Source: Streptomyces lunaelactis
GTDB taxonomy: Bacteria > Actinomycetota > Actinomycetes > Streptomycetales > Streptomycetaceae
Assembly: GCF_003054555.1 (NCBI RefSeq)
Contig: NZ_CP026304.1
Coordinates: 5,952,001 to 6,016,000, forward strand
Direction: 5' to 3'
Length of the DNA: 64,000 nt
Position 1 is the stretch's first letter; each line of letters starts with the position of its first letter. Shown piece after piece: positions 1,844 to 13,263 of this stretch. The position numbers and the translations under genes were made by a program. Under the pieces are notes generated by a model. It saw only the letters and a list, made by a program, of their open reading frames with translations. It did no database searches and had not been told where the DNA came from.

Positions 1844-2310
1844 GCGAACTCCTTCTGCGAGGGGGGTACCGGTCGGCTGGGTGGGGCCGGCCGGGCAGAG
1901 CATGCGGAGCACATGTGGAGCGTGGATCGCAGGAAGAGTGGCAGCAGTGAACGGTTGCTGTCAGGACCGCGTCAACAAGTTGGCCGGAAATCGTCCGCTG
2001 CCCGATTGGTCATGTTCGTTAAGCGGACGTTTCGTCGATCATCACCGCGACGCCGTCGAACGTTCGCGCAGGCCGGACTCAGCGAGTGTTTCGAGGTTCA
2101 TCCCCAACTCGTGCTGTGTGAACGGGGTGTTGAGTGCGGGCTGGTTCCCGGTCGTGGCGATCACCTCGAACTGTGGCTCGTTCCGGGCGCCCGTGCGGCA
2201 GCGGAAGCGAGGGGCCCTGCGGCGGCAGTGAAGGTGAACTCCAAGTGAACAGATGGACCGGGAAGTGATCGGCCCGCTTTCCGGGGGAGGGCGCTTCGTA
2301 TGCTGCATAG
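1844..2310. other. Intergenic region between protease and ArsR-type regulator
   Basis: This 467-nt stretch separates two divergent genes and must hold the promoters of both. Short open frames here have no recognisable product and no good ribosome-binding site. The only structured signal I can point to is the small inverted repeat at its right end, listed separately. Confidence 0.6.
2299..2309. promoter_or_regulatory. Candidate ArsR operator abutting the regulator's start codon
   Basis: TATGC-T-GCATA is a perfect 5-bp inverted repeat directly before the ATG at 2311. ArsR/SmtB repressors commonly bind short AT-containing inverted repeats over their own promoter or start. A related element (ATAGAGGC, 4-bp gap, GCCTATAT) occurs at about 2779-2798, between this gene's terminator and pstS. 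That would fit shared control, but this is inference from short motifs. Confidence 0.35.
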
Positions 2311-2682
2311 ATGAGTGTCTTTATACCGGGCCCGCAATCGGGCGAGGGGGTCACCGGGCCGTGCGCACCCTCGCTGACCGCACCCCTCGCGGACCGTGAG
2401 CAGGTCCAGCGCACCGCCCGCGTGCTGAAGGCGATCGCCGACCCCACCCGGCTGCAGCTGCTGCACCTGATACAGACCGCGCCCGGCGGTGAGGCCTGCG
2501 TCGGCAACCTCACCGAGAAGCTCGGGCTGCGGCAGCCGACCATAAGCCACCATCTGAAGACCATGGCCACGGCCGGCCTGCTGTCGCGCGAGAAGCGCGG
2601 CACCTGGGTCTGGTACTCGGTCGACCGGGTGGGCATGGAAGCCGTACGGCGGATCCTGAGCTCACCCGTCGCTTCCCTCTGA
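2311..2682 (+). CDS. ArsR/SmtB-family winged-helix repressor
   Basis: A 123-residue protein with the ArsR fold: a helix around VLKAIADPTRLQLLHLI, recognition helix RQPTISHHLKTM, and wing EKRGTWVWYSVD. The metal-site position reads EACVGNL, so only one of the two cysteines of the classical CVC arsenite box is present. The inducer could therefore differ from arsenite, or the site may be completed by other residues. It is followed by a convincing terminator (2728-2760) and then pstSCAB, so it is a separate transcript from the importer. As first gene of the phosphate/arsenic locus it is a plausible regulator of that locus. The family is certain; target and ligand are inferred. Confidence 0.85.
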   Translation: MSVFIPGPQSGEGVTGPCAPSLTAPLADREQVQRTARVLKAIADPTRLQLLHLIQTAPGGEACVGNLTEKLGLRQPTISHHLKTMATAGLLSREKRGTWVWYSVDRVGMEAVRRILSSPVASL

Positions 2683-2727
2683 AGACGGCCTGGGCGGAGA
2701 CTCAAGCGCTTTCCGAAACGCACGCCT

Positions 2728-2760
2728 GAGGGTGGAGGGAAATAGCTTCCGCCCTCTTTT
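2728..2760 (+). terminator. Rho-independent terminator after the ArsR gene
   Basis: GAGGGTGGAGG (2728-2738) pairs with CTTCCGCCCTC (2746-2756), with G-U wobbles across a 7-nt loop, and is followed directly by TTTT. This separates the regulator from the downstream pst operon. Confidence 0.75.
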
Positions 2761-2825
2761 CTATGCGCCCGACATGCACATAGAGGCGATTGCCTATATA
2801 GATGCACAGCTATAGTTCCCGACTG

Positions 2826-2858
2826 GGTCACCGTTTGTACACCGTGGATTCATATAGT
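2826..2858 (+). promoter_or_regulatory. Candidate PHO box (PhoP direct repeats) upstream of pstS
   Basis: Three adjacent 11-bp units resemble the Streptomyces PHO-box unit (G-T/G-TCAYYYR-SS): GGTCACCGTTT (2826-2836), GTACACCGTGG (2837-2847) and the weaker ATTCATATAGT (2848-2858). They lie about 90-120 nt before the pstS start. Phosphate-limitation control by PhoR-PhoP is expected for pst operons in this genus. The match was made by eye. Confidence 0.5.
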
Positions 2859-2948
2859 CAAAGTTCGATCCAAGGTGTGAGGGGGTCTCCCGTACCGGCC
2901 CCTCGGATGCCGGCTTCGACACCGGCCCGACCTCAAGGATCGAGAAAA

Positions 2949-3926
2949 GTGAACGCAGCCAGTGGTTCCAGAAGGTTTGCCGGGCCCGCCGCGCTGGCCT
3001 TCGCCGCAGCACTGACGCTGAGCGCCTGCGGGGGCGGGGATTCGGGCAGCACCTCGGGCTCCGCTGTGAGCGAAGAACTGTCGGGCAAGGTCACGGTGGA
3101 CGGCTCCAGCACGGTCGCACCACTGAGTACGGCCGCCGCCGAACTCTTCGCCGAGGAGCAGCCCAAGGTCCAGGTCACCGTGGGCACCTCCGGCACCGGC
3201 GGCGGCTTCGAGAAGTTCTGCAACGGCGAGACCGACATCTCCGACGCCTCCCGCCCCATCGAGCCCGACGAGAAGGCCGCCTGCGACAAGAAGGGCATCA
3301 CGTACGACGAACTCACCGTCGCCAATGACGCGCTGACCGTCGTGGTGAACAAGGACGCCGACTGGGTCGACTGCCTGACCGTCGCCCAGCTGAAGAAGAT
3401 CTGGGAACCCAAGTCCACGGTCAACAACTGGAACCAGGTCGACCCCACGTTCCCGAGCGTGCCGCTGAAGCTCTTCGGCGCGGGCACCGACTCGGGCACC
3501 TTCGACTACTTCACCGAGGTGATCAACGGCGAGGAAGGCGCGTCCCGCACCGACTACAGCCCGACCGAGGACGACAACGTCACGGTGCAGGGCGTCGCCG
3601 GATCCGACGGCGGCATGGGCTACTTCGGCTTCTCCTACTTCGAGGAGAACCAGGACAAGCTCAAGGCCCTGAAGATCAACGCCGGTGACGGCTGCGTGGC
3701 GCCCGGTGTGGAGACCGCGCAGAACGGCACGTACAAGCCGCTGTCCCGTCCACTGTTCATCTACCCGAGCGCCAAGGCTCTGGAGCGCCCGGAGGCCGAG
3801 GGGTACGTCGAGTACTACGTCGAGAACAACCAGGACATCGCCAAGGACGCCAAGTTCATCCCGCTCAACGCCACGCAGGAGAAGGAGCTCCAGGCCGACC
3901 TCGAGAAGCTGAAGTCGAGCCAGTGA
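2949..3926 (+). CDS. pstS: PstS, phosphate ABC transporter substrate-binding lipoprotein
   Basis: The 325-residue protein starts at GTG 2949, preceded by AAGGA, which gives a clean lipoprotein signal ending in LTLSAC. Upstream in-frame starts would only add a non-signal leader. Phosphate-contact loops are visible: DGSSTVAPL, VGTSGTGGGF and ISDASRPI; later GAGTDSGTFDYF and the C-terminal FIYPSAKALERPEAEGYVEYY are typical of the family. It binds phosphate outside the membrane for PstCAB. Its sequence type differs clearly from the second PstS in this window (8431-9555). It overlaps pstC by 3 bp (GTGA junction). An unusually phosphate-selective importer in an arsenic locus would limit arsenate entry; that role is inferred from context. 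Confidence 0.93.
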   Translation: MNAASGSRRFAGPAALAFAAALTLSACGGGDSGSTSGSAVSEELSGKVTVDGSSTVAPLSTAAAELFAEEQPKVQVTVGTSGTGGGFEKFCNGETDISDASRPIEPDEKAACDKKGITYDELTVANDALTVVVNKDADWVDCLTVAQLKKIWEPKSTVNNWNQVDPTFPSVPLKLFGAGTDSGTFDYFTEVINGEEGASRTDYSPTEDDNVTVQGVAGSDGGMGYFGFSYFEENQDKLKALKINAGDGCVAPGVETAQNGTYKPLSRPLFIYPSAKALERPEAEGYVEYYVENNQDIAKDAKFIPLNATQEKELQADLEKLKSSQ

Positions 3927-4864
3927 CTGCGCCCGTCCCACCGTCCCCCGCAGGGACTCGCTCCCTGCGGCGGGCCCGGCCACACTACGGCGAGGCGGTC
4001 ATCAAGGCGCTGCTGTTCCTGGCAGCCCTGGTCTCGGTCGGCACCACGGTCGGGATCGTGGTGGCGCTCATCCCGCCGACCGCCGACTTCTTCCAGAGGG
4101 TCGGTGTGTGGGAGTTCCTCTCCGGCACCGAGTGGACCGCCCTGTTCTCCGACCCCAAGTACGGCGTCCTGCCCCTGCTGACGGCCACAGTGCTGATCAC
4201 CGTCATCGCGCTGATCGTGGCGATCCCCATCGGCCTGGGGGCCGCCGTCTATCTCAGCGAGTACGCGAGCCGGCGCACGCGCGGCATCTTCAAGCCGATT
4301 CTGGAGATCCTGGCCGGTATCCCCACCGTGGTCTACGGCTTCTTCGCGTTCGCCTTCATCACCCCACTGCTCCAGGACCACTGGCCCTTCGGCGACCCGC
4401 CCGAGGTCAAGAACGCCCTGTCCGCCGGGCTCGTGATGGGTGTCATGATCGTGCCGACCATCGCCTCCCTCTCTGAGGACGCGATGTCGGCCGTCCCGTA
4501 CTCGCTGCGCGACGGCGCCTATGCGCTGGGCTCCGGCAAGCGCACTGTCTCGGTACGGGTCGTCATGCCGGCCGCGCTGTCCGGCATCGTTGCCGCCTTC
4601 GTCCTCGGTGTCTCCCGCGCGCTCGGCGAGACCATGATCGTGCTGATCGCGGCGGGCGCGAAGCCCGATCTGACCCTCAATCCGCTGCATGAGATGCAGA
4701 CGATGACCGCCTTCATCGCGGGCGCGGCGTCCGGTGACGTCTCGACGGCGTCCTTCGAGTACAAGACCATCTTTGCCGTCGGCGCACTGCTGTTCCTGCT
4801 GACCTTCGTGATGAACGTGATCAGCATCCGTCTGGTGCGCAAGTACCGCGAGGTGTACGAATGA
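3923..4864 (+). CDS. pstC: PstC, phosphate ABC transporter permease
   Basis: The 313-residue inner-membrane protein begins at GTG 3923, overlapping the pstS stop. About six membrane segments are seen, beginning ALLFLAALVSVGTTVGIVVAL, with the conserved segment EILAGIPTVVYGFFAFAF and the ATPase-coupling loop with GAYALGSGKRTVSVRVVMPAA and SRALGET. Together with PstA it forms the phosphate channel. The stop overlaps the pstA start (ATGA), indicating translational coupling. Confidence 0.93.
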   Translation: MTAPVPPSPAGTRSLRRARPHYGEAVIKALLFLAALVSVGTTVGIVVALIPPTADFFQRVGVWEFLSGTEWTALFSDPKYGVLPLLTATVLITVIALIVAIPIGLGAAVYLSEYASRRTRGIFKPILEILAGIPTVVYGFFAFAFITPLLQDHWPFGDPPEVKNALSAGLVMGVMIVPTIASLSEDAMSAVPYSLRDGAYALGSGKRTVSVRVVMPAALSGIVAAFVLGVSRALGETMIVLIAAGAKPDLTLNPLHEMQTMTAFIAGAASGDVSTASFEYKTIFAVGALLFLLTFVMNVISIRLVRKYREVYE

Positions 4865-5769
4865 GCGTCGTGGGCGACCCGATCGCACCACCGGCCCCCG
4901 TGCCGGGCCGCAAGCTGGCGGGCCCGCGCTTCCGCCCGGGCGAAGCCGCCTTCCGCTGGCTTCTGTTCTCCTGCCTGGCCATCAGCATTGCGTTCCTCGG
5001 TGTGCTGTTGATCTACGTCCTGGTCGCCGCGTGGCCGCGGCTGGACTCCCGGCTGTGGACCAACTTCCCCTCGATCCGCCGCCCCGAGAGAGCGGGTGCC
5101 CAGTCGGCGATCTTCGGCACGATCTGGGTGATCTCCTTCACCGCGCTGTTCTGCCTGCCGACCGGAATCATGGCGGCGATCTATCTGGAGGAGTACGCCA
5201 ATCCCGACCGCTGGTACAACCGGCTGATCGAGCTGAACATCCAGAACCTCGCCGCGGTCCCCTCGATCATCTACGGCATCCTGGGACTCGGCCTGCTCGC
5301 CCGCCAACTCGGCCTCGGCACAACGGTGTTGACGGCATCGCTCACTCTGTCACTGCTGGTGCTGCCCATCGTGATCATCTCGGCGCGGGAAGCCATCAGA
5401 GCCGTACCGCAGTCAATCCGGCAGGCTTCGCTGGCTCTGGGGGCGACGCGGTGGCAGACCGTACGGCGCCAGGTCCTGCCCGCCGCTGTCCCAGGCATCG
5501 CGACCGGATCGATCCTCGCCCTGTCCCGGGCGATCGGCGAGGCCGCACCCGTGATCATGCTCGGCGCGGTCACCTATGTTGCGTTCAACCCCGAGGGGCT
5601 GGGGAGCGCGTACACCGTGCTGCCCGTGCAGATCTACGGCTGGATCAGCCAGTCCCGTGAGGAGTTCCACCACCTGGCAGCCGCGGCTATCGTGATCCTG
5701 CTGGGCCTGCTGCTCGCGATGAACGCCACCGCCATCTGGCTCCGCAACCACTACAGCAAGCGCTGGTGA
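4861..5769 (+). CDS. pstA: PstA, phosphate ABC transporter permease
   Basis: This 302-residue membrane protein starts at ATG 4861 within an ATGA overlap with pstC. It shows the PstA pattern: a long first helix ([20 protein letters not shown]), a periplasmic stretch, [20 protein letters not shown], and the coupling loop [19 protein letters not shown] followed by [14 protein letters not shown]. It pairs with PstC. Its own stop overlaps the pstB GTG start by 4 bp. Confidence 0.93.
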
Positions 5770-6635
5770 CCGCCATGACAAAGGACGACACCCCCGAGAG
5801 CCACGGTTTCTCGATCGCGCTCGGTGGCCGGCGGCACGGCAGGCCGTCGCCCTCGCTGGACAACCCGGTCTTCCAGATCGCCGATCTGGATGTCTGGTAC
5901 GGCGACCACCAGGCCGTACGCGATGTCACGCTGACCGTCGGCAGCCGTCAGATCACCTCGATGATCGGCCCCTCCGGCTGTGGCAAGTCCACGGTGATCC
6001 GCTGTCTGAACCGGATGAACGACCTGATCCCCGGCGCCCGTGTCACCGGGAAGGTCGCGTACTACGGGGAGAGTCTGTACGACGCCGAGGTCGACCCGAT
6101 CGAGGTCCGGCGGCGGATCGGCATGGTCTTCCAGAAGCCGAACCCCTTCCCGAAGTCGGTCTACGACAACGTTGCGTACGGGCCGCGGGTGAACGGTGTG
6201 AAGGGCAATCTCGACGATCTCGTCGAAGAAGCCCTGACCGGAGCGGCGCTGTGGGACGAGGTCAAGGACAAGCTGAAGGCGAGTGCGCTTGCGCTGTCCG
6301 GCGGCCAGCAGCAGCGGCTCTGCATCGCCCGCGCCATCGCGGTGAAGCCCGAGGTGATCCTGATGGACGAGCCGTGTTCCGCGCTGGACCCGATCGCCAC
6401 CGCCAAGATCGAGGACCTGATGGCGGAACTGGCCTCGCAGTTCACGATCGTCATCGTCACCCACAACATGCAGCAGGCCGCCCGTATCTCCGACTACACC
6501 GCTTTCTTCACCGCGGACGTCGACGAGGAGGGGGTGCGCCACGGCCGTCTCGCCGAGTACGACACCACGGTGACGATCTTTGAGAACCCGGCCGACCAGC
6601 GCACCGAGGACTACATCACCGGTCGTTTCGGCTAG
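5766..6635 (+). CDS. pstB: PstB, phosphate ABC transporter ATPase
   Basis: The 289-residue ATPase is coupled to pstA by a GTGA overlap; an ATG at 5775 is an alternative start. Walker A is GPSGCGKST, the signature is [14 protein letters not shown], Walker B with catalytic Glu is [13 protein letters not shown], and the switch His is in [10 protein letters not shown]. It carries roughly 40 residues ahead of the core domain, more than a minimal PstB. Its TAG stop lies inside the left arm of the palindrome at 6632-6684. No phoU is linked, so this is a lean secondary Pst system rather than the housekeeping locus. Confidence 0.94.
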
Positions 6636-6684
6636 GCCGTGTCTGACACATAGCGCCAGACGGGATTTGTCAGACACGGCCTAG
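6632..6684. repeat. 53-bp element with perfect 17-bp inverted repeats between pstB and arsC
   Basis: CTAGGCCGTGTCTGACA (6632-6648) is repeated perfectly inverted at 6668-6684, around a 19-nt centre. The pstB stop (TAG 6633-6635) and the arsC stop (cta 6681-6683) both lie in the outer CTAG of the arms. It can work as a bidirectional terminator for the convergent genes, but there is no T-run. The CTAG ends look like a 4-bp target duplication around 13-bp terminal repeats, so a MITE or collapsed IS5-type element is an equally good reading. Confidence 0.8.
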
Positions 6685-7175
6685 GAGGTCCGGGTGCCAC
6701 CAGCGCGGCGCTTCGCGGCCTCGGCGTCGATCTCGGCGATCAGGCCCTCGACGAGCCTCTTGATCTCGTCGCGGATGGGGCGTACGGCCTCGACGCCCTG
6801 CCCGGCCGGGTCCTCCAGCTGCCAGTCCAGGTAGCGCTTGCCGGGGAAGACCGGGCAGGTGTCGCCGCAGCCCATGGTGATGCAGACGTCGGACTCGCGG
6901 ACGGCGTCGATCGTGAGGATCTTCGGGGTTTCGGCGGAGATGTCGATGCCGGCCTCCTTCATCGCCTCGACCGCGGCCGGGTTCACGGCGTCGCCGGGGT
7001 TGGATCCCGCGGAGCGGACCTCTATCCGGTCCCCGGCCAGGTGGGTCAGCCAGGCGGCCGCCATCTGGGAGCGTCCGGCGTTGTGGACACAGACGAACAG
7101 CACGGAGGCGGCAGGGGTGGAGGACATCGGTTCTTCTTCCGGATCAGGAAGGGCGGGGAGCGGTGGGGTGGACAT
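6681..7175 (-). CDS. arsC: ArsC, thioredoxin-coupled arsenate reductase (low-molecular-weight phosphatase fold)
   Basis: A protein of 164 residues from the ATG at 7175, which has GGAGGGGG before it; an ATG at 7127 would give 148 residues and starts closer to the conserved fold. The active loop is VCVHNAGRSQM (Cys-X5-Arg-Ser). The relay cysteines lie in MGCGDTCPVFPGK, followed by YLDWQLEDPAGQ, the pattern of the arsenate reductase branch rather than of tyrosine phosphatases. It reduces arsenate to arsenite in the cytoplasm using thioredoxin or a similar thiol. It is divergent from the ArsR at 7251 and close to the aquaporin-type channel, a layout known from aqpS-arsC loci. Confidence 0.92.
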   Translation of the reverse strand: MSTPPLPALPDPEEEPMSSTPAASVLFVCVHNAGRSQMAAAWLTHLAGDRIEVRSAGSNPGDAVNPAAVEAMKEAGIDISAETPKILTIDAVRESDVCITMGCGDTCPVFPGKRYLDWQLEDPAGQGVEAVRPIRDEIKRLVEGLIAEIDAEAAKRRAGGTRTS

Positions 7176-7216
7176 GGGACCCCCTCCGAACGGGCGCTAC
7201 GGCTCAGTCCAGACTG

Positions 7217-7248
7217 GTATCAGCTCTGGATGATGTGACAGTATCAGC
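7217..7248. promoter_or_regulatory. Candidate operator: direct repeat in the arsC/arsR divergent promoter
   Basis: GTATCAGC occurs at 7217-7224 and again at 7241-7248, 24 bp apart, in the 75-nt gap between the divergent arsC and arsR-type genes. Its position over both promoters suits repressor binding. The assignment is by position and repetition only. Confidence 0.35.
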
Positions 7249-7250
7249 CC

Positions 7251-7565
7251 ATGATGACGTCAGTCGACACTGAACTGATCCGGGTGCTGGCCGACCCGCT
7301 CAGGCTCAAGATCGTGACCCTGCTCGCCCGCGAGACGCTCTGTACGACGCACCTGGTCGAGGAGACCGGTGCACGGCAGACCAATCTCTCCAACCACCTG
7401 AAGGTGCTGCGCGAGGCCGGGGTCGTGGAGACCGAGCCCTGCGGACGGTTCACGTACTACCGGCTGAGGCCCGACGTCATCGAGGCGCTCGCCGGTCAGT
7501 TCGCCGACCTGGCCGTGACCGCGCGTGCCACGGCCGATGCGAACCTCAAGCGCTCCTGCCCCTGA
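7251..7565 (+). CDS. ArsR/SmtB-family repressor, divergent from arsC
   Basis: A 104-residue single-domain regulator: LIRVLADPLRLKIVTLLARE, then the metal-site region TLCTTHLVEE, recognition helix ARQTNLSNHLKVLREAG, and wing TEPCGRFTYYRLR. Cysteines at the alpha-3 region (LCTTH), the wing (EPCG) and the C-terminus (KRSC) could form a thiolate sensor, but the classical CVC box is absent, so its sensor site differs from that of the ArsR at 11380-11739. It is expected to repress arsC and its own transcript, which continues into the channel gene 37 nt downstream. An ATG at 7254 is an alternative start. Confidence 0.87.
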   Translation: MMTSVDTELIRVLADPLRLKIVTLLARETLCTTHLVEETGARQTNLSNHLKVLREAGVVETEPCGRFTYYRLRPDVIEALAGQFADLAVTARATADANLKRSCP

Positions 7566-7602
7566 TCACGTTGTCCCGTCGCATCCGCACGGAGGAGTCC
7601 TG

Positions 7603-8388
7603 TTGAGCACCACCCGGGCCGCCCGCCCCGAGACCGCCGCGGAGTCAGTCATGGCCGCCGCAGAGCCCCGGCCCGCGCCGGGCGCCGCACCGCCCCGCAC
7701 GCCGCTGGTCGCCCGGGCCGCCGCCGAACTGGTCGGCACCGCCGCTCTGGTCGCGGTGGTGGTCGGCTCCGGCATCCAGGCCACCGAACTGACCCAGGAC
7801 GTCGGCCTCCAGCTGCTCGCCAATTCCCTGGCCACGGTCTTCGGACTGGGTGTCCTCATCGCTCTGCTCGGCCCGGTCTCCGGTGCGCACTTCAACCCGG
7901 CCGTGACCCTGGCCGAGTGGTGGACCGCCCGCCGCGGGGGCGCCGGCGTCACCGCCCGCGAGGTGGCCGTGTACGTCCCCGCCCAGGTCGCGGGGGCGAT
8001 TGCCGGTGCCGTGCTGGCCGACGCGATGTTCGGCGAGCCGCTGGTCAAGTGGTCCACGCACGACCGCTCCGCCGGCCATCTGCTGCTGGGCGAGGTCGTG
8101 GCAACGGCCGGGCTGATCCTGCTGATCTTCGGACTGGCGCGCACCGACCGCCTGCGTTTCGCACCGGTCGCCATCGCCTCGTACATCGGCGCCGCCTACT
8201 GGTTCACCTCGTCCACCTCGTTCGCCAACCCGGCTGTGACGATCGGCCGCGCGTTCTCCGACACATTCGCCGGCATCGCACCCGGCTCGGTCCCGGGCTT
8301 CATCGGCGCCCAACTGGCCGGTGCCGTGGTCGGGCTGGCCCTGGTGGCGCTCATCTTCATGCAGGGGCGGGCCGATTCGCGGCCGTGA
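7603..8388 (+). CDS. MIP/aquaporin-family channel, probable arsenite channel
   Basis: The TTG at 7603 has GGAGG seven bases upstream and gives 261 residues with a short Ala/Pro-rich cytosolic head. Six membrane segments and the two half-helix NPA motifs are present: HFNPAVTLAEWW and FANPAVTIGRAF. Family members conduct water, glycerol or neutral metalloids. Lying just after an ArsR gene and opposite arsC, it is likely an AqpS-type channel through which arsenite formed by ArsC leaves the cell down its gradient. No Acr3 or ArsB pump is found in the window, which supports this exit route. The MIP family is certain; arsenite as substrate is inferred from neighbours. Confidence 0.85.
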   Translation: MSTTRAARPETAAESVMAAAEPRPAPGAAPPRTPLVARAAAELVGTAALVAVVVGSGIQATELTQDVGLQLLANSLATVFGLGVLIALLGPVSGAHFNPAVTLAEWWTARRGGAGVTAREVAVYVPAQVAGAIAGAVLADAMFGEPLVKWSTHDRSAGHLLLGEVVATAGLILLIFGLARTDRLRFAPVAIASYIGAAYWFTSSTSFANPAVTIGRAFSDTFAGIAPGSVPGFIGAQLAGAVVGLALVALIFMQGRADSRP

Positions 8389-8430
8389 GGGTGACGCCGA
8401 AGGGTGACGCCGAAGCGTGACGCCGACGCG

Positions 8431-9555
8431 TCAGGACAGGGTGCGGATGACCGTGCGGACCTGGTCGGCCACCGCCTCCGGCAGGGGGGCGTAGTGAATC
8501 CGCGGGAGGTCCTTCTGGCCCTCCGGACCCGCGGTGTAGGTCAGGAAGGACTTCAGGGCGGGCAGTACATCGGCCGGCGTGCCCTTGTCGCAGACGATCT
8601 CGTACGTGACCTGGACGATGGGGTAGGCCCCGGCGGCCTTGGTGCTGTAGTCGAACTTCAGCGTGATGTCCTTGCCGGTGCCTGCCACTTGGCCTGCGGC
8701 GATACCGGCTGAGGCGGTCTCGGCGGAGACGGCGACGGGCTCGGGGGCACCCGTGTCGAGTCTGACCGTGGGGATCTTGCCCGCCTTGGCGAACGAGAGC
8801 TCGAAGTAACCGATCGCGCCGTCAGTGGCGCCTACCTGAGTTGCCACTCCGTCCGAACCGGGCGCGGAGTTGCCGCCCTTGGCCTGCCAGGCTTTCGTTT
8901 TCGGGTAGGGCCACTCGTCCGGCGCGGCCCCGGCGAGGTAGGCGTTGAGGTTCTGGGTCGTGCCCGAATCGTCGGAGCGGTGCAGTGCGCTGATGGGGAT
9001 TGCGGGCAGCCGAAGCCCGGGGTTCAGGCGCTGGATGGCCGGAGCGTCCCACGTCGTGATCTCCGAATTGAAGATCTTCGCGAGGGTGGGGGCGTCCAGT
9101 ACGAGGTTCTCCACGCCCGAGACGTTGTAGCCGATGGCGATGGGGCCGCCGACCATCGGCAGATCGATGGCTCTGCCCCCCGGACACACCTCGCGGGAAT
9201 CCTCGACCTCGTTGGGCTTCAGTGCGCTGTCGGTCCCGCCGAGCACGGTCGCCCCGCGCAGGAACTGGGCGACACCGGCCCCGGAGCCGACGGGCACGTA
9301 GCGGATCTCCACCCCGGGGCACGCCCGCTGGTACTCCCGCATCCAGTGCGCCATCGCGTTCTGCTGGGCGCTGGAACCGGAGGCGGGCAGCTGCCCCTTC
9401 TGCGCGCACGCGATGCGGCTTGTCGTCGCCTTCGTGGGCGGTGGGTCCTCGTCCGCGGCGTCGCCGAGCCCGCAGGCGGTCAGGAGCACGGCGCCCGCCA
9501 CTGCTGTCACACCCGCGCCGAGCAGGTACCTGCGGCTCGTCAGTCGATGCTGCAT
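8431..9555 (-). CDS. Second PstS-type phosphate-binding lipoprotein, stand-alone
   Basis: A 374-residue protein with the ATG at 9555 preceded by GGAAGGG. The N-terminus carries a twin-arginine-like signal (TSRRYLLGAG) ending in a lipobox (LLTAC). Phosphate-binding loops are LPASGSSAQQNAM, GSGAGVAQFLRG and DSALKPNEV, with HRSDDSGTTQNLNAYL in the second lobe. It belongs to the other PstS branch from the protein at 2949-3926 and has no permease or ATPase beside it, so it must serve the pstCAB above, another Pst complex, or act as a phosphate scavenger or sensor. A PHO-box-like repeat lies about 55-75 nt before the start. It runs convergently toward the channel gene. Confidence 0.88.
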   Translation of the reverse strand: MQHRLTSRRYLLGAGVTAVAGAVLLTACGLGDAADEDPPPTKATTSRIACAQKGQLPASGSSAQQNAMAHWMREYQRACPGVEIRYVPVGSGAGVAQFLRGATVLGGTDSALKPNEVEDSREVCPGGRAIDLPMVGGPIAIGYNVSGVENLVLDAPTLAKIFNSEITTWDAPAIQRLNPGLRLPAIPISALHRSDDSGTTQNLNAYLAGAAPDEWPYPKTKAWQAKGGNSAPGSDGVATQVGATDGAIGYFELSFAKAGKIPTVRLDTGAPEPVAVSAETASAGIAAGQVAGTGKDITLKFDYSTKAAGAYPIVQVTYEIVCDKGTPADVLPALKSFLTYTAGPEGQKDLPRIHYAPLPEAVADQVRTVIRTLS

Positions 9556-9609
9556 CCGTGTTCCCTTCCAGAAGCCGGGAAAATAGATGTTCGCCCTATG
9601 CACGAGCGC

Positions 9610-9631
9610 CTGGGGTGACGCGTCGATGAAC
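9610..9631 (-). promoter_or_regulatory. Candidate PHO box upstream of the second PstS gene
   Basis: On the minus strand two abutting 11-bp units read GTTCATCGACG (9631-9621) and CGTCACCCCAG (9620-9610), matching the GTTCAYC core of Streptomyces PHO boxes. Their spacing and orientation toward the gene starting at 9555 fit activation by PhoP. Confidence 0.5.
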
Positions 9632-9752
9632 ACCAGCTGTCGCTCTGCCACTCTTTGGAAGGCGCGAGCGTTCACCCGGCGGAGGCGGGCGCCGGCAGAG
9701 CTGCCGCGGCGCCGTCCAGGCGCGGCGCGCTCATTGGCGGCAGACTGCTGCC

Positions 9753-11363
9753 ATGGCTGCGAGTGAGTCACTTGATGTCCTGGTGGTGGGCGGGGGGCCG
9801 ACGGGGCTGGCTCTCGCGGCTCAGTTGCACGCGTACGGCGCGCGGTTCCGGATCGTCGACCGGAACCTGGACCGGGCCAGGGAGTCACGTGCCCTGGCCA
9901 TCCAGCCCCGGACCCTGGAAGCCCTGGCCCCGTTCGGCGTGACGGACACATTGGTCGCGCGCGGGAATCCGGCCGTGCAGCTGCGGATGCACCTTCCGGG
10001 TCGTCGTACGGTCCGGCTGCCGCTGTTCGACATCGGCGTCGCCGACACCCCGTACCCCTTCCTGCTGTTCCTGTCCCAGGCCGAGACGGAGAGCGTGGTC
10101 GGCAGCCGTCTCGCCGAGGACGGTACGGCGGTCGAACGGGGAACCGAGCTGGTGGAGCTGACTGCCGAAGGGGGTCACGTCGCCTGCCGGTTGAGGCAGC
10201 GCGACGGCACCGAGGAGAGCGTGCGTGCCCGCTATGTCGTCGGCTGCGACGGGGCGCGCAGCACGGTACGCGATCAGGCCGGGATCGGCTTCGACGGCTA
10301 CTCCTACCCGCAGACGTTCCTCCTCGCTGACCTGGAGGTCGACGGTCTGGAACGCGGCGCCGCGCACGCGTACATGACCGAGACCGGGATGCTGTTCTTC
10401 TTCCCGCTGGGCTCGCCCGCGAGCTGGCGGATGCTCGCGATGCGACCGTCCGGAACCCCCGATGCCGGAACCCCGGGTGCCAAGGGCCCGGATGCCAGCA
10501 GCCCGGGTGCCGAAAACCCGGTGGACATCGGCCAGTTGCAGTCGATTGCCGACCGTTACGTCAGCGACCGGCTGCTCCTGCGCGACCCGGTGTGGATGAC
10601 CGACTTCCGGATCCACAACCGCGGCGCCAAGAACTACCGCTCCGACCGCGTCTTCCTGGCCGGTGACGCCGCCCACATCCACAGTCCCGCCGGGGCCCAG
10701 GGCATGAACACCGGCATCCAGGACGCCCTCAATCTCGGCTGGAAACTCGCCCTCGTCTGCCGCGACGCCGCACCGGCCGCCCTGTTGGACACGTACGAGA
10801 GTGAACGCGCCCCGGTCGGCCGGAACGTCCTGCGCTTCACCGACCGCGCCTTCATCATCGCCACCAGCCGCAGTCCACTGCTGCGGCTGGCCCGCACCCA
10901 CCTCGCACCCCGCCTCGCCCCGCTGGTCCTTCGCCTTCCCGCCCTGCGCGCCGCGGCCTTCCGTAGGCTCTCCCAGCTGGCCATCAACTACCGGCGCAGC
11001 CCCGCCACGGCCGAGGGCCCGCATCCACCCAGGCGCGGCCCGCGGGCAGGTGACCGGCTCCCCGACACTCCCGGCGGCCTGCATGCGACGACTGCCGCGC
11101 CCGGGTACCACCTGCTCCTCTGCGGCCCGCACGACGTCTGGGACACCGGCCGGATCGAGGCCGCCACCCGCGGCCGCGATCACCTGATCCATGTCCACAC
11201 ACTCGGTACGAAGGTGCCCTGGCGCGGCATCACGCACTGCCTGGTCCGGCCCGACGGCTACATCGCGTACCGGGCCGGAGGTACGGACCTGACCGGGCTC
11301 GTCGGATATCTCGAACGGTGGCTGCCGCTCTCGGCCGCCGCGGCGCGCACGACCCGCGCGTGA
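9753..11363 (+). CDS. FAD-dependent aromatic-hydroxylase-type monooxygenase (PHBH fold)
   Basis: A 536-residue protein with the dinucleotide-binding motif VVGGGPTGLALAAQL near the N-terminus, the middle DG motif YVVGCDGARSTVRD, and the second FAD motif FLAGDAAHIHSPAGAQGMN followed by GIQDALNLGWKLA. A C-terminal thioredoxin-like domain ending near RPDGYIAYRAGG is typical of phenol/polyketide hydroxylases of this class. Residues of about 234-253 are a low-complexity insert made of four 15-nt repeats. No polyketide or aromatic pathway genes are adjacent, so the substrate is unknown. It diverges from the PstS-type gene and converges on arsR. Confidence 0.85.
   Translation: MAASESLDVLVVGGGPTGLALAAQLHAYGARFRIVDRNLDRARESRALAIQPRTLEALAPFGVTDTLVARGNPAVQLRMHLPGRRTVRLPLFDIGVADTPYPFLLFLSQAETESVVGSRLAEDGTAVERGTELVELTAEGGHVACRLRQRDGTEESVRARYVVGCDGARSTVRDQAGIGFDGYSYPQTFLLADLEVDGLERGAAHAYMTETGMLFFFPLGSPASWRMLAMRPSGTPDAGTPGAKGPDASSPGAENPVDIGQLQSIADRYVSDRLLLRDPVWMTDFRIHNRGAKNYRSDRVFLAGDAAHIHSPAGAQGMNTGIQDALNLGWKLALVCRDAAPAALLDTYESERAPVGRNVLRFTDRAFIIATSRSPLLRLARTHLAPRLAPLVLRLPALRAAAFRRLSQLAINYRRSPATAEGPHPPRRGPRAGDRLPDTPGGLHATTAAPGYHLLLCGPHDVWDTGRIEAATRGRDHLIHVHTLGTKVPWRGITHCLVRPDGYIAYRAGGTDLTGLVGYLERWLPLSAAAARTTRA
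10452..10511 (+). repeat. Four degenerate 15-nt tandem repeats inside the monooxygenase gene
   Basis: Units at 10452-10466, 10467-10481, 10482-10496 and 10497-10511 encode GTPDA, GTPGA, KGPDA and SSPGA (consensus xxP-D/G-A), and a fifth partial unit (ENP) follows. The insert keeps the frame and sits between the substrate-binding strands and the second FAD motif, probably as a flexible surface loop. Confidence 0.8.
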
Positions 11364-11379
11364 ACGGCGATGGTGCGCG

Positions 11380-11739
11380 TCAGGCCGCGTACCGGCCGAG
11401 GATGTGGCCCAGGGCGGCCAGCACGGACGGCTCGACCCGGTAGTAGACCCAGGTGCCGCGCCGCTCGGAGGTGAGCAGGCCCGCTTCCTTGAGCTTCTTC
11501 AGGTGATGGCTGACGGTCGGCTGGGAGACGCCGACGTCGGAGATGTCGCAGACGCATGCCTCGCCGCCCTCGTGCGAGGCGATCGACGAGAAGAGCCGCA
11601 GCCGGACCGGGTCGCCGAGCGCCTTGAACATGGCGGCCGTGCGTACGGCCTCCTCTGCCGTGAGGGGGCGTTCGGTCAACGGCGGGCAGCAGGGGGCGAC
11701 GTCCGGCTCCAGCAGGGGCAGCACCTTCGTATTCGACAT
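11380..11739 (-). CDS. arsR: ArsR, arsenite-responsive repressor with CVC box
   Basis: A 119-residue repressor. The sensor box ACVCDI and the N-terminal CCPP pair supply the cysteines expected for arsenite binding; recognition helix SQPTVSHHLKKLKEAG and wing SERRGTWVYYRVE follow. The ATG at 11739 has no Shine-Dalgarno sequence, and an operator-like repeat covers the start, which suggests a leaderless transcript. The same reading frame stays open far upstream through arsO, but only this portion is coding. It is divergent from arsO and should control both genes. Of the three ArsR-type proteins in the window this is the one with the classical arsenite site. Confidence 0.93.
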   Translation of the reverse strand: MSNTKVLPLLEPDVAPCCPPLTERPLTAEEAVRTAAMFKALGDPVRLRLFSSIASHEGGEACVCDISDVGVSQPTVSHHLKKLKEAGLLTSERRGTWVYYRVEPSVLAALGHILGRYAA

Positions 11740-11820
11740 ACGTCTATGTTGACACACGTCGAACCAAGCGCCCGCGTCGCTCCTCTGTTTCGATGTGTGT
11801 CTATGTTGACGTCCATCGAA
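11732..11820. promoter_or_regulatory. Two copies of an ArsR-operator-like repeat in the arsR/arsO divergent promoter
   Basis: GTCTATGTTGAC, five variable bases, then TCGAA occurs at 11742-11763 and again, in the same orientation, at 11799-11820. The first copy extends leftward into an imperfect palindrome, TTCGACATA (11732-11740) against TATGTTGAC (11745-11753), which overlaps the arsR start codon. A shorter related piece (GGATGTCGAA) lies near 11853-11862, close to arsO. Duplicate operators between divergent ars promoters are the expected arrangement. Confidence 0.7.
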
Positions 11821-11883
11821 GCAGGTGGCATCCTGGCTACGTAAGCCATCGACGGATGTCGAAATAATGCCTGGGGAGTCACC

Positions 11884-13263
11884 GTGACCGTGCCGACCAC
11901 CGAGATGCCCGCCACCGCCCTGCCCACCGTGGTGATCGGAGCCGGCCCGATCGGTCTGGCCGCTGCCGCCCACCTCGTCGAGCGCGGCATCGAGCCCCTG
12001 GTCCTGGAGGCGGGGGACAGTGCGGGCGCCGCCGTACGGCAGTGGAGTCATGTACGCCTCTTCTCCACCTGGGCCGAGCTCGTCGACCCCGCCGCCGAGA
12101 AGCTCCTGGCCCCCACCGGCTGGACCGCGCCCGACGGAGCGACGTACCCCACCGGCGGCGACTGGGCGGAGCGCTACCTGCAGCCGCTCGCCGACACCCT
12201 GGGCGACAGGGTCCGCTTCGGCGCCCGCGTCACCGGTGTCTCCCGCCTCGGCCGCGACCGGGTCGTCGACGCCGACCGCGAGCGGCAGCCCTTCACCGTG
12301 CACATCCAAGGCGCCGACGGGACCGAGCAGCGGATCACGGCCCGCGCCGTCATCGACGCCTCCGGCACCTGGTCGACGCCCGGCCCGATCGGCGGCGACG
12401 GCCTGCCCGCCCTCGGCGAGCGCGCTGCGGCAGACCGCATCTCCTACCGGGTCCCGGACCTCAAGGACCCGGCCGTACGCGCCCGTTACGAGGGCCGGCG
12501 CACCGCCGTCATCGGCTCCGGCGCCTCCGCCTTCACCGCCCTCGCCGACCTTGCCGACCTGGCCGAGGACGCCCCGGGCACCCACGCCGTGTGGGTCCTG
12601 CGGCGCGGCATCGGCGGCTCCACCTTCGGCGGCGGCGAAGCCGACCAACTGCCCGCCCGCGGCGCACTCGGCCTGCGTGCCAAGGCCGCCGTCGACGACG
12701 GATACGCCTCCGCCGTCACCGGATTCCGCACGGCAGCCGTCGAGAGGAGCGGCGGCCGGCTGGTGCTCGTGGCCGAGGACGGGCGCCGTCTCGACCCGGT
12801 CGAGACGGTCATCGTGCTGACCGGCTTCCGCCCCGACCTGTCCTTCCTCGAAGAGCTCCGCCTCGGGCTCGACGATCGTCTCCAGGCTCCGGTCGAACTG
12901 GCCCCGCTGATCGACCCCAATGTCCACTCCTGCGGCACCGTCCACCCGCACGGCGTCCGCGAGCTCTCGCACCCGGAGCAGGACGTCCACCTCGTCGGCA
13001 TGAAGAGCTACGGCCGGGCCCCGACCTTCCTCGCCATGACCGGCTACGAGCAGGTCCGCTCCGTCGCAGCCGCCCTCGCCGGAGACCAGGAAGCCGCCGA
13101 GCGCGTCGAGTTGACCCTCCCCGAGACCGGCGTATGCGGCGGCGCCGGCCTGTTCGACGAGCCCGACGCCGCCAGGGCCGAAGAGGGCGGCGGCTGCTGT
13201 GCGGCCCCCACCACCCTCCAGATCGGCACCGGCACCCCGGCCACCTCCGGCGGCGGCTGCTGA
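11884..13263 (+). CDS. arsO: ArsO-type flavin-dependent monooxygenase of arsenic loci, with Cys-rich tail
   Basis: GTG 11884 follows GGGGAG. The 459-residue protein has a Rossmann FAD motif VVIGAGPIGLAAAAHL, a Baeyer-Villiger-like region, a second nucleotide motif TAVIGSGASAFTALADL, the conserved ATG-like segment VIVLTGFRPDLSFL, and near the end HLVGMKSYGRAPTFLAMTGYEQVRS, characteristic of ars-operon flavoproteins. The last 40 or so residues hold cysteines in VCGGAG, GGGCCAAP and SGGGC, a likely arsenite-binding tail. Family members are linked to arsenic resistance, but the reaction is not settled. Divergent from arsR through shared operators. No acr3 follows it, unlike many homologous loci. 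Confidence 0.88.
   Translation: MTVPTTEMPATALPTVVIGAGPIGLAAAAHLVERGIEPLVLEAGDSAGAAVRQWSHVRLFSTWAELVDPAAEKLLAPTGWTAPDGATYPTGGDWAERYLQPLADTLGDRVRFGARVTGVSRLGRDRVVDADRERQPFTVHIQGADGTEQRITARAVIDASGTWSTPGPIGGDGLPALGERAAADRISYRVPDLKDPAVRARYEGRRTAVIGSGASAFTALADLADLAEDAPGTHAVWVLRRGIGGSTFGGGEADQLPARGALGLRAKAAVDDGYASAVTGFRTAAVERSGGRLVLVAEDGRRLDPVETVIVLTGFRPDLSFLEELRLGLDDRLQAPVELAPLIDPNVHSCGTVHPHGVRELSHPEQDVHLVGMKSYGRAPTFLAMTGYEQVRSVAAALAGDQEAAERVELTLPETGVCGGAGLFDEPDAARAEEGGGCCAAPTTLQIGTGTPATSGGGC

What the first reader, a model, noticed from the sequence alone, without database searches (positions are those of the whole stretch)
2311..13263. Phosphate-importer plus arsenic-detoxification locus with three different ArsR-type regulators
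A complete pstSCAB, a second unrelated PstS, arsC, a MIP channel, arsO and three ArsR/SmtB repressors lie within 11 kb. The three repressors have different sensor boxes (EACVGNL, TLCTTHL, EACVCDI), so the locus may read more than one signal. The idea that fits best is a combined program: raise selective phosphate uptake while arsenate is reduced and arsenite leaves by a channel. pst genes occur in some bacterial arsenic islands (established), but this set with an aquaporin-type exit, dual PstS types and layered ArsR control in Streptomyces looks unusual.
Basis: partly seen in the sequence, partly recalled or inferred. Interest (0 to 1): 0.85.

Follow-up and report, generated by a model that had tools for sequence, protein, structure and literature searches.

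The report
Arsenic-repressor switch on phosphate importer genes
In this Streptomyces chromosome a set of phosphate-import genes sits in an arsenic-defence island, and a conserved pair of DNA sites in front of the importer, found almost only where one particular ArsR repressor gene is a neighbour, suggests that arsenic and phosphate shortage jointly control phosphate uptake.

Summary
In detail: arsR1, pstSCAB, arsC, arsR2, a MIP channel, pstS2, arsR3 and an arsO-like gene lie in 11 kb. The set is not unique: PstS1 relatives occur in 28 of 392 Streptomyces genomes, 11 of them with an ArsR1-type gene within 6 kb. The new result is a promoter circuit. A 16-bp site (ATAGATG-N5-CTAT) lies 151 bp before the inferred pstS start, a second site exactly 56 bp further on, with PhoP-type repeats between. 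Site 1 (at most 1 mismatch) is at pstS in 12 of 15 Streptomyces loci with ArsR1 and 1 of 18 without; in other genera, not used to define it, in 7 of 10 with an ArsR1-clade gene and 0 of 60 without. ArsR2 and ArsR3 have other boxes at their own promoters. I conclude that ArsR1 represses pstSCAB (probably also pstS2 and itself), so arsenic and phosphate shortage act together; arsC-MIP and arsO look like separate modules. Agrobacterium ArsR1 is a published precedent, so this is a new variant. Oddest: most pst-linked ArsR1 relatives in Micrococcales have no cysteine, so their signal is unknown. Nothing was tested by expression or binding.

The parts
2234..2250 (-). PHO-box-like direct repeat GTTCAC-N5-GTTCAC upstream of arsR1
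   Evidence: the one exact match in the window; similar element at arsR1 in 14 of 15 loci scored (shuffle P <= 0.04 each)
2307..2322 (+). ArsR1-type site over the arsR1 start codon, 1 mismatch to ATAGATG-N5-CTAT
2311..2682 (+). arsR1, ArsR-family repressor with two Cys (18, 65)
   Evidence: PF01022, NF033788, tree, Cys count
2728..2756 (+). terminator-like hairpin between arsR1 and pstS
   Evidence: 1 found, 0.3 expected
2798..2813 (+). operator site 1, ATAGATGCACAGCTAT; the only exact match in the 8.57-Mb genome
2815..2858 (+). four 11-bp PHO-like repeats of uneven quality (GTTCCCGACTG GGTCACCGTTT GTACACCGTGG ATTCATATAGT), between and partly under the two operator sites
   Evidence: sequence; scores
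2854..2869 (+). operator site 2, ATAGTCAAAGTTCGAT, 56 bp after site 1, overlapping a possible -10 (TATAGT 2853-2858, read by eye)
2949..3926 (+). pstS1 (TIGR02136 type, lipoprotein-like N terminus); GTG start inferred
3923..4864 (+). pstC
   Evidence: TIGR02138 over cut-off
4861..5769 (+). pstA
   Evidence: PF00528; 87% identical in L031, 86% in L038
5766..6635 (+). pstB
   Evidence: TIGR00972 over cut-off
6681..7127 (-). arsC, LMWPc-fold arsenate reductase; best solved match 3t38; start inferred
   Evidence: below NCBIfam arsenate reductase cut-offs
7231..7247 (+). ArsR2 box TGATGTGACAGTATCAG
   Evidence: found at the arsR2 promoter and nowhere else, in 9 of the 33 Streptomyces loci scanned
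7251..7565 (+). arsR2
7603..8388 (+). MIP channel; two NPA motifs, Val directly after the second NPA (read from sequence); TTG start inferred
   Evidence: PF00230; below the NCBIfam MIP cut-off
8431..9555 (-). pstS2, orphan PstS of E. coli type (TIGR00975)
9583..9599 (+). operator-like site upstream of pstS2, ATAGATG-N6-CTAT (spacer one base longer than elsewhere)
   Evidence: sequence; sites with N5 spacer before pstS2 in L140 (exact), L146 and L151 (1 mismatch)
11380..11739 (-). arsR3, Cys pair plus CVC box
11732..11763 (-). ArsR3 box, imperfect palindrome TTCGAC...GTCGAA
   Evidence: sequence; core pattern
11884..13263 (+). arsO-like flavin monooxygenase, divergent from arsR3
   Evidence: 82% relative beside arsR3 in L148; below NCBIfam ArsO cut-off

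Best explanation
ArsR1 is a dedicated repressor of the island's extra phosphate importer. Its dimers bind two sites 56 bp apart in the pstS promoter; the sites flank a PhoP (phosphate-starvation regulator) repeat array and the downstream one covers a likely -10, so bound ArsR1 would block PhoP activation or RNA polymerase. An arsenic signal releases ArsR1; full pstSCAB transcription then needs phosphate shortage as well (an AND gate). The same repressor probably controls arsR1 itself and the orphan pstS2. ArsR2 separately controls arsC and the MIP channel (arsenate reduced, arsenite leaves by the channel), and ArsR3 controls arsO. Purpose: keep phosphate coming in while arsenate competes for uptake. 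Shown: genes, recurrent linkage, conserved sites, their co-occurrence with the ArsR1 clade, PHO-like repeats. Inferred: binding, repression, inducer, PhoP action, AND logic, purpose.
For: Site 1 occurs exactly once in the 8.57-Mb genome, at pstS; of the 4 distinct places with at most 1 mismatch, 2 lie at arsR1/pstS and 2 elsewhere (the reversed control pattern also gave 2). Streptomyces: site 1 (at most 1 mismatch) in 12 of 15 ArsR1 loci versus 1 of 18 others, Fisher p 1.4e-5; the one exception, L043, ends 4.7 kb downstream, so a neighbour may be unseen. Non-Streptomyces, site-1 motif fixed beforehand: at most 1 mismatch in 7 of 10 ArsR1-clade loci versus 0 of 60, p 1e-7; at most 2 mismatches 9 of 10 versus 2 of 60. 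Tandem pair at exactly 56 bp in 12 of 15 Streptomyces ArsR1 loci (1 of 18 others, L043), at 55-57 bp in 7 of 10 other ArsR1-clade loci (pair score at most 2), 0 of 60 without. Loci with ArsR2 or ArsR3 but no ArsR1, such as L148, lack the site. pst-linked ArsR1 fall in one clade, 26 rows, 99/95 support. Sites also between arsC' and arsR1 and before pstS2 in several relatives. PHO-like repeats at pstS in 13 of 16 loci and at arsR1 in 14 of 15. Precedent: A. tumefaciens ArsR1 represses pstS1/phoB1 and binds two places between them (PMC7965956, passages read).
Against: No binding or expression data. Three Streptomyces loci with ArsR1 (L034, L038, L139) lack site 1; L034 and L038 keep site 2, L139 neither. 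L071 has a clade member 3.4 kb upstream and no site. The Streptomyces test is circular in that the motif came from those promoters, and loci are related, so Fisher p values overstate the case. The second-site variants were widened, so the tandem test outside Streptomyces is not blind. Window ArsR1 has only two Cys, and seven of the eight Micrococcales rows of the clade plus L051 have none (L082 has one), so an As(III)-thiol signal is doubtful for part of the clade. No consensus sigma-70 promoter was found. The PHO consensus was recalled; window-wide, PHO-like pairs with up to 2 mismatches are not clearly in excess (8 found, 3.67 expected, 7 of 100 shuffles reach 8), and shuffle P values are per locus, uncorrected. 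PHO-like repeats at pstS2 were clear in window, L151, L033, L143 but not in L140, L146. In 396 phylum-level and 393 class-level genomes the exact tandem pattern gave no case outside Streptomyces.
Confidence: 0.72

Rival explanations
1. ArsR1 controls pst, but as an independent arsenic switch: As(III) alone derepresses pst and the PHO repeats add only a parallel phosphate response (OR or additive logic, as in Agrobacterium where ArsR control is insensitive to phosphate).
For: [quoted passage not shown] The geometry alone does not fix the logic.
Against: The repeats lie between and abut the two sites, and PHO-like repeats also sit at arsR1, which fits cross-control better than independence.
Confidence: 0.2
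2. The island pst is an ordinary second phosphate importer picked up with arsenic genes; the tandem site belongs to another regulator such as the OmpR-type protein often encoded after pstB.
For: A pstSCAB-regulator block exists without ArsR1 in many of the loci examined.
Against: That regulator is found in loci that lack the site, and the window has the site but the same test found no such regulator after its pstB; the site tracks ArsR1.
Confidence: 0.08
3. PstS1 is tuned to import arsenate (for example for organoarsenic synthesis), not to exclude it.
For: PstS1 shows ASR, as C. perfringens 4gd5, where E. coli-type PstS has an Asp; a review says the C. perfringens protein lacks the low-barrier bond and has higher arsenate affinity (PMC7866108, passages; that 4gd5 is that protein is recalled).
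Against: No organoarsenic gene was recognised among the 20 ORFs scanned to the right of the island, though the rest of the genome was not searched for them; PHO-like repeats point to phosphate need.
Confidence: 0.1

Closest known systems
ArsR1-controlled pst1/pho1 of the Agrobacterium tumefaciens 5A arsenic island (PMC7965956, passages; Kang 2012 and 2016 as cited there)
   Same: An ArsR encoded in an ars locus represses an extra, island-borne pst operon and binds two places upstream of pstS; a separate pho/pst2 exists elsewhere.
   Different: Other phylum; arsenite oxidase genes there; other motifs (TCGTCG-TGTC is named near both promoters); no PHO array between sites in the passages read; ArsR control there said to be phosphate-insensitive; here the clade includes Cys-free members.
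Arsenic islands with pst1 (Li 2013, PMC3834237, passages)
   Same: ars plus pst linkage (10 pst1 operons in 21 islands), extra pst besides a distant one.
   Different: Those islands were chosen around aioBA; the main text has no word beginning 'actinobacteri', and the passages read name no pst operator.
AqpS-ArsC pathway of Sinorhizobium meliloti and the Salinispora tropica fusion (PMC6205960, passages)
   Same: A MIP channel in an ars locus, proposed to replace ArsB.
   Different: Here inside a larger island with pst, pstS2 and two more ArsR.
arsRBOCT of Streptomyces pHZ227 (only the reference title seen, in PMC6205960)
   Same: ArsR, ArsO and ArsC in Streptomyces.
   Different: No ArsB or Acr3 found here; pst and MIP present.

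Membership tests
ArsR/SmtB repressors (all three) | ArsR-type HTH over curated cut-off | tested here: met
   PF01022 over cut-off for ArsR1 and ArsR2, NF033788 over cut-off for all three
As(III)-sensing ArsR of the CgArsR kind (for ArsR1) | three Cys ligands (Cys15, 16, 55 in CgArsR; PMC13236881, passages) | tested here: not met
   ArsR1 has only Cys18 and Cys65. ArsR3 has a Cys pair that aligns to the pair of 6j0e, plus a CVC box; its ligands not testable
Phosphate ABC importer pstSCAB | all four subunits adjacent and family-assigned | tested here: met
   (PstA by Pfam and gene order only)
ArsR-controlled pst (Agrobacterium kind) | ArsR site in the pst promoter | tested here: inconclusive
   sequence and co-occurrence only
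ArsR-controlled pst (Agrobacterium kind) | pst induced by As(III), derepressed without arsR | not testable with these tools
   needs expression data
Streptomyces PHO regulon | 11-nt direct repeats bound by PhoP | tested here: inconclusive
   repeats present; binding not testable; consensus recalled
AqpS-type arsenite channel | MIP gene linked to arsC/arsR with no ArsB or Acr3 in the genome | tested here: met
   MIP beside arsR2 and arsC; no ArsB match, no Acr3 over cut-off; other pump types not tested
AqpS-type arsenite channel | conducts arsenite | not testable with these tools
   needs flux assay; similarity to AqpS itself not tested
ArsO flavin monooxygenase | NCBIfam ArsO cut-off 425 bits | tested here: not met
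   53.6 bits

The most novel reading that the evidence does not exclude
A clade of pst-dedicated ArsR repressors in Actinobacteria works through a conserved 55-57-bp tandem operator and, in most Micrococcales members seen, has lost every cysteine while keeping the operator. These would be ArsR proteins in arsenic islands that do not sense As(III) by thiols but read another signal, for example arsenate, phosphate or a partner protein, making pst an arsenic-and-phosphate gate with a non-thiol sensor; the two-Cys window protein would be an intermediate or an organoarsenic-selective form.
Probability: 0.35. Interest if true: 0.8.

Novelty: new variant of a known kind. Interest (0 to 1): 0.6.

Why it matters
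Phosphate and arsenate enter by the same route, and how soil actinomycetes keep phosphate uptake going under arsenate is open. Here is a concrete, conserved promoter in which an ArsR site pair surrounds a PhoP-type array, so the question becomes a gel shift and a reporter assay. It also resolves 'three repressors' into three boxes with separate targets, and it points to ArsR-family proteins without cysteine at arsenic loci, whose signal cannot be guessed from the family name.

Tried and rejected
Organoarsenic biosynthesis cluster nearby: of 20 ORFs scanned to the right of the island, 19 had ordinary families (ABC exporters, serine hydroxymethyltransferase, gcvT, an opp-type transporter, NAD-dependent DNA ligase, amidase and others) and one had none, so dropped. 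A paper search on Streptomyces arseno-organic clusters and pstS (20 of 5,717 papers listed) showed no title on this locus. FAD monooxygenase 9753-11363 as an island member: no other locus had it at the 35% identity filter used, so treated as an insertion (inference). The pstS site as an ArsR2 or ArsR3 site: rejected by L148 and by their own boxes. An existing report of the circuit: six searches of the held open-licence library; only capped listings were seen (20 of 93, 15 of 56, 13 of 13, 12 of 45, 12 of 20, 2 of 2), plus passages of five papers; no actinobacterial ArsR-pst operator in them, which is not proof of absence. AqpS pore residues: the search listed unrelated aquaporin papers; the Val after the second NPA is only noted. 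The search for the C. perfringens PstS paper did not list it. Sigma-70 promoter scan empty. Phylum and class scans for the tandem pattern hit 1 of 396 and 2 of 393 genomes (G000, and G000 plus G218), each at pstS, reversed control 0 in every row shown: good specificity, no new lineage, low power because the module is rare. Structure prediction, fold search and the large protein search were not run.

In one search ArsR1 presence used 50% identity and missed L082, L087 and L094, which the tree places in the clade; one search uses the tree. One search scored 12 of the 17 Streptomyces loci that have neither ArsR1 nor the site; L043 was put with the ArsR1 group there although no ArsR1 was in view.
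Full report
What is there. The window is G000:C1:5952001-6016000 of an 8.57-Mb genome in 3 contigs, listed as 100% complete. It is a Streptomyces: genomes listed as the same genus have contigs that match named Streptomyces records in length and content, such as G281 and L039 (inference). Between 2311 and 13263 lie arsR1, pstSCAB, arsC (minus), arsR2, MIP, pstS2 (minus), a FAD monooxygenase, arsR3 (minus) and an arsO-like gene. The island pst is an extra system: a PstS 55% identical to PstS2 lies at C1:4074818 with PstC-like frames at 29% and 27% after it. The genome shows no ArsB match and one weak Acr3-family match, 36 of 282.8 bits, so the MIP next to arsC is the only candidate arsenite exit among the families tested. 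The 20 ORFs scanned further right are ordinary chromosome.

Is the gene set recurrent? PstS1 relatives at E <= 1e-60 occur in 28 of 392 Streptomyces genomes; in 11 of these 28, the window's included, an ArsR1-type gene lies within 6 kb. The kit pstSCAB, arsC', arsR1, arsC, arsR2, pstS2, arsR3, arsO is seen in L151 (without a MIP match), and large parts of it in L144, L145, L146, L149 and L148; the MIP was matched only in L144 and L148 among the other Streptomyces loci. Besides Streptomyces, pst with ArsR1-like genes and arsC appears in Actinomadura, Allonocardiopsis and several Micrococcales, while Nonomuraea, Salinispora and most of the others show the same pst without matches to the ars queries in the stretch held. 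So pst and ars parts can occur apart, but their linkage recurs. In the nearest relative, G123 (PstS1 80%), arsR1-pstSCAB stands without matches to the other ars queries in the 20 kb read, which suggests that arsR1-pst is the basic unit.

The promoter. Upstream of pstS, most Streptomyces loci with ArsR1 share ATAGATG-N5-CTAT followed by 11-bp PHO-like repeats. In the window, site 1 is 2798-2813, the repeats run 2815-2858, and site 2 (ATAGTCAAAGTTCGAT) is 2854-2869. Site 1 is the only exact match in the genome; with at most one mismatch there are 4 distinct places: pstS, the arsR1 start (2307) and two elsewhere; the reversed control pattern gave 2 matches, so the two elsewhere are what chance gives. 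In the window, 8 matches with up to 2 mismatches against 1.35 expected. A longer pattern with the first PHO half gave exact matches in 5 of 392 Streptomyces genomes, each 117-140 bp before the PstS1 match, reversed control 0; the window itself does not match this longer form. Because the pattern was derived from such loci, the point is the absence of others.

Association with ArsR1. Streptomyces, 33 loci: site 1 (at most one mismatch) in 12 of 15 with ArsR1, 1 of 18 without, p 1.4e-5; the one is L043, whose contig ends 4.7 kb downstream. Outside Streptomyces, 70 loci, site-1 motif already fixed: 7 of 10 with a clade member, 0 of 60 without, p 1e-7; with two mismatches 9 of 10 and 2 of 60. Tandem arrangement: exactly 56 bp in 12 of 15 Streptomyces ArsR1 loci, 55-57 bp in 7 of 10 others, 0 of 60 non-Streptomyces loci without ArsR1, and L043 alone among the 18 Streptomyces loci without. 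These p values treat related loci as independent and so overstate the strength. Counter-cases are L034, L038, L139 (no site 1; the first two keep site 2) and L071. Sites also lie between arsC' and arsR1 (L144, L145, L146, L149, L151, L041, L044, L047) and before pstS2 (L140, L146, L151); a few further one-mismatch sites lie elsewhere in these loci and were not followed. In the window the pstS2 site has a spacer one base longer (9583-9599).

Three repressors, three boxes. ArsR2's box TGATGTGA-N-AGTATCAG appears at the arsR2 promoter in 9 of 33 Streptomyces loci scanned, the 9 in which an arsR2 was matched, and nowhere else in them; the ArsR3 box at arsR3 in 3 of 33 (arsR3 of L149 is cut by the end of the stretch). 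The tree puts ArsR1, ArsR2 and Streptomyces ArsR3 in separate supported clades (99/95, 97/97, 98/98), several rows having long branches of unsure place; the window ArsR1 pairs with that of G123 at 95/77.

What ArsR1 senses. Of 15 Streptomyces ArsR1, ten have five Cys, L034 three, and four (window, G123, L040, L140) two; seven of the eight Micrococcales rows of the clade (including the long-branched fusion L091 9347) and L051 have none in the first 130 residues, L082 has one, L042 three, L071 five (starts inferred). CgArsR uses three Cys, and a two-Cys-site ArsR from Shewanella responds to methylarsenite but not As(III) (PMC13236881, passages read). The same paper reports a one-Cys ArsR with As(III) affinity comparable to a three-Cys one and suggests that residues other than Cys may contribute. 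So the signal of the window ArsR1 is uncertain, and the Cys-free ones cannot hold As(III) by their own thiols, though As(III) binding by other residues is not excluded.

Phosphate side. PHO-like repeats: 13 of 16 loci at pstS (shuffle P <= 0.035 per locus; in L140 and L040 the best match was on the other strand), 2 of the 12 Streptomyces loci without ArsR1 that I scored, and 14 of 15 at arsR1 itself, on the opposite strand; at pstS2 in window, L151, L033 and L143 but not L140 and L146. Window-wide, such pairs with up to 2 mismatches are not clearly in excess (8 against 3.67). The review PMC7866108 (passages) describes 11-nt PhoP repeats at the S. coelicolor pstS; the consensus letters I used are recalled. 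By a motif test an OmpR-type gene follows pstB in 44 loci, with or without arsR1; one was checked by Pfam (L151: Trans_reg_C over the cut-off, receiver domain below it). The test found none after pstB in the window. PstS1 matches 4jwo best (277 bits) and aligns with 4gd5 at ASR; PstS2 aligns with PstS3 4lvq and E. coli-type entries with the Asp kept. If the review's account of that Asp holds, PstS1 may discriminate less against arsenate than PstS2; this is inference.

Known or new. ArsR control of an island-borne pst is published for Agrobacterium (PMC7965956, passages), and arsenic islands with pst in PMC3834237 (passages). The actinobacterial clade, its tandem operator around a PHO-type array and the loss of Cys were not found in the searches made (open-licence library only, capped listings). 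Hence: new variant of a known kind, with one unexplained feature, the Cys-free members.

Noticed in passing
6636-6683: Long inverted repeat (GGCCGTGTCTGACA...TGTCAGACACGGCC, read by eye) between the convergent pstB and arsC, perhaps a shared terminator or a mobile-element scar.
   Followed up: no
9753-11363: FAD-dependent aromatic hydroxylase-like monooxygenase inside the island, not matched in the other loci compared.
   Followed up: partly
L083, L151 and 42 further loci, after pstB: OmpR-type regulator gene (by a motif test; L151 checked by Pfam, weak receiver domain) encoded after pstSCAB, also where no ArsR1 was seen; not found in the window.
   Followed up: partly
L042, L051, L083, L092, L106 upstream of pstS: Two ArsR1-type sites 55-57 bp apart although the ArsR1 relatives in L051, L083, L092 and L106 have no cysteine.
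   Followed up: yes
L082, L087, L091, L092 (minus strand near arsR1): ArsC proteins with an N-terminal ArsR-like stretch, degenerate in several (seen in the translations).
   Followed up: no
G000:C1:6715666-6719261: Third set of PstC-like and PstS-like frames, possibly another phosphate-type importer.
   Followed up: no
1-2230: Left edge of the window: the long plus-strand frames 23-1735 and 1533-2231 match no Pfam family and may be shadows of a minus-strand gene; not annotated.
   Followed up: no
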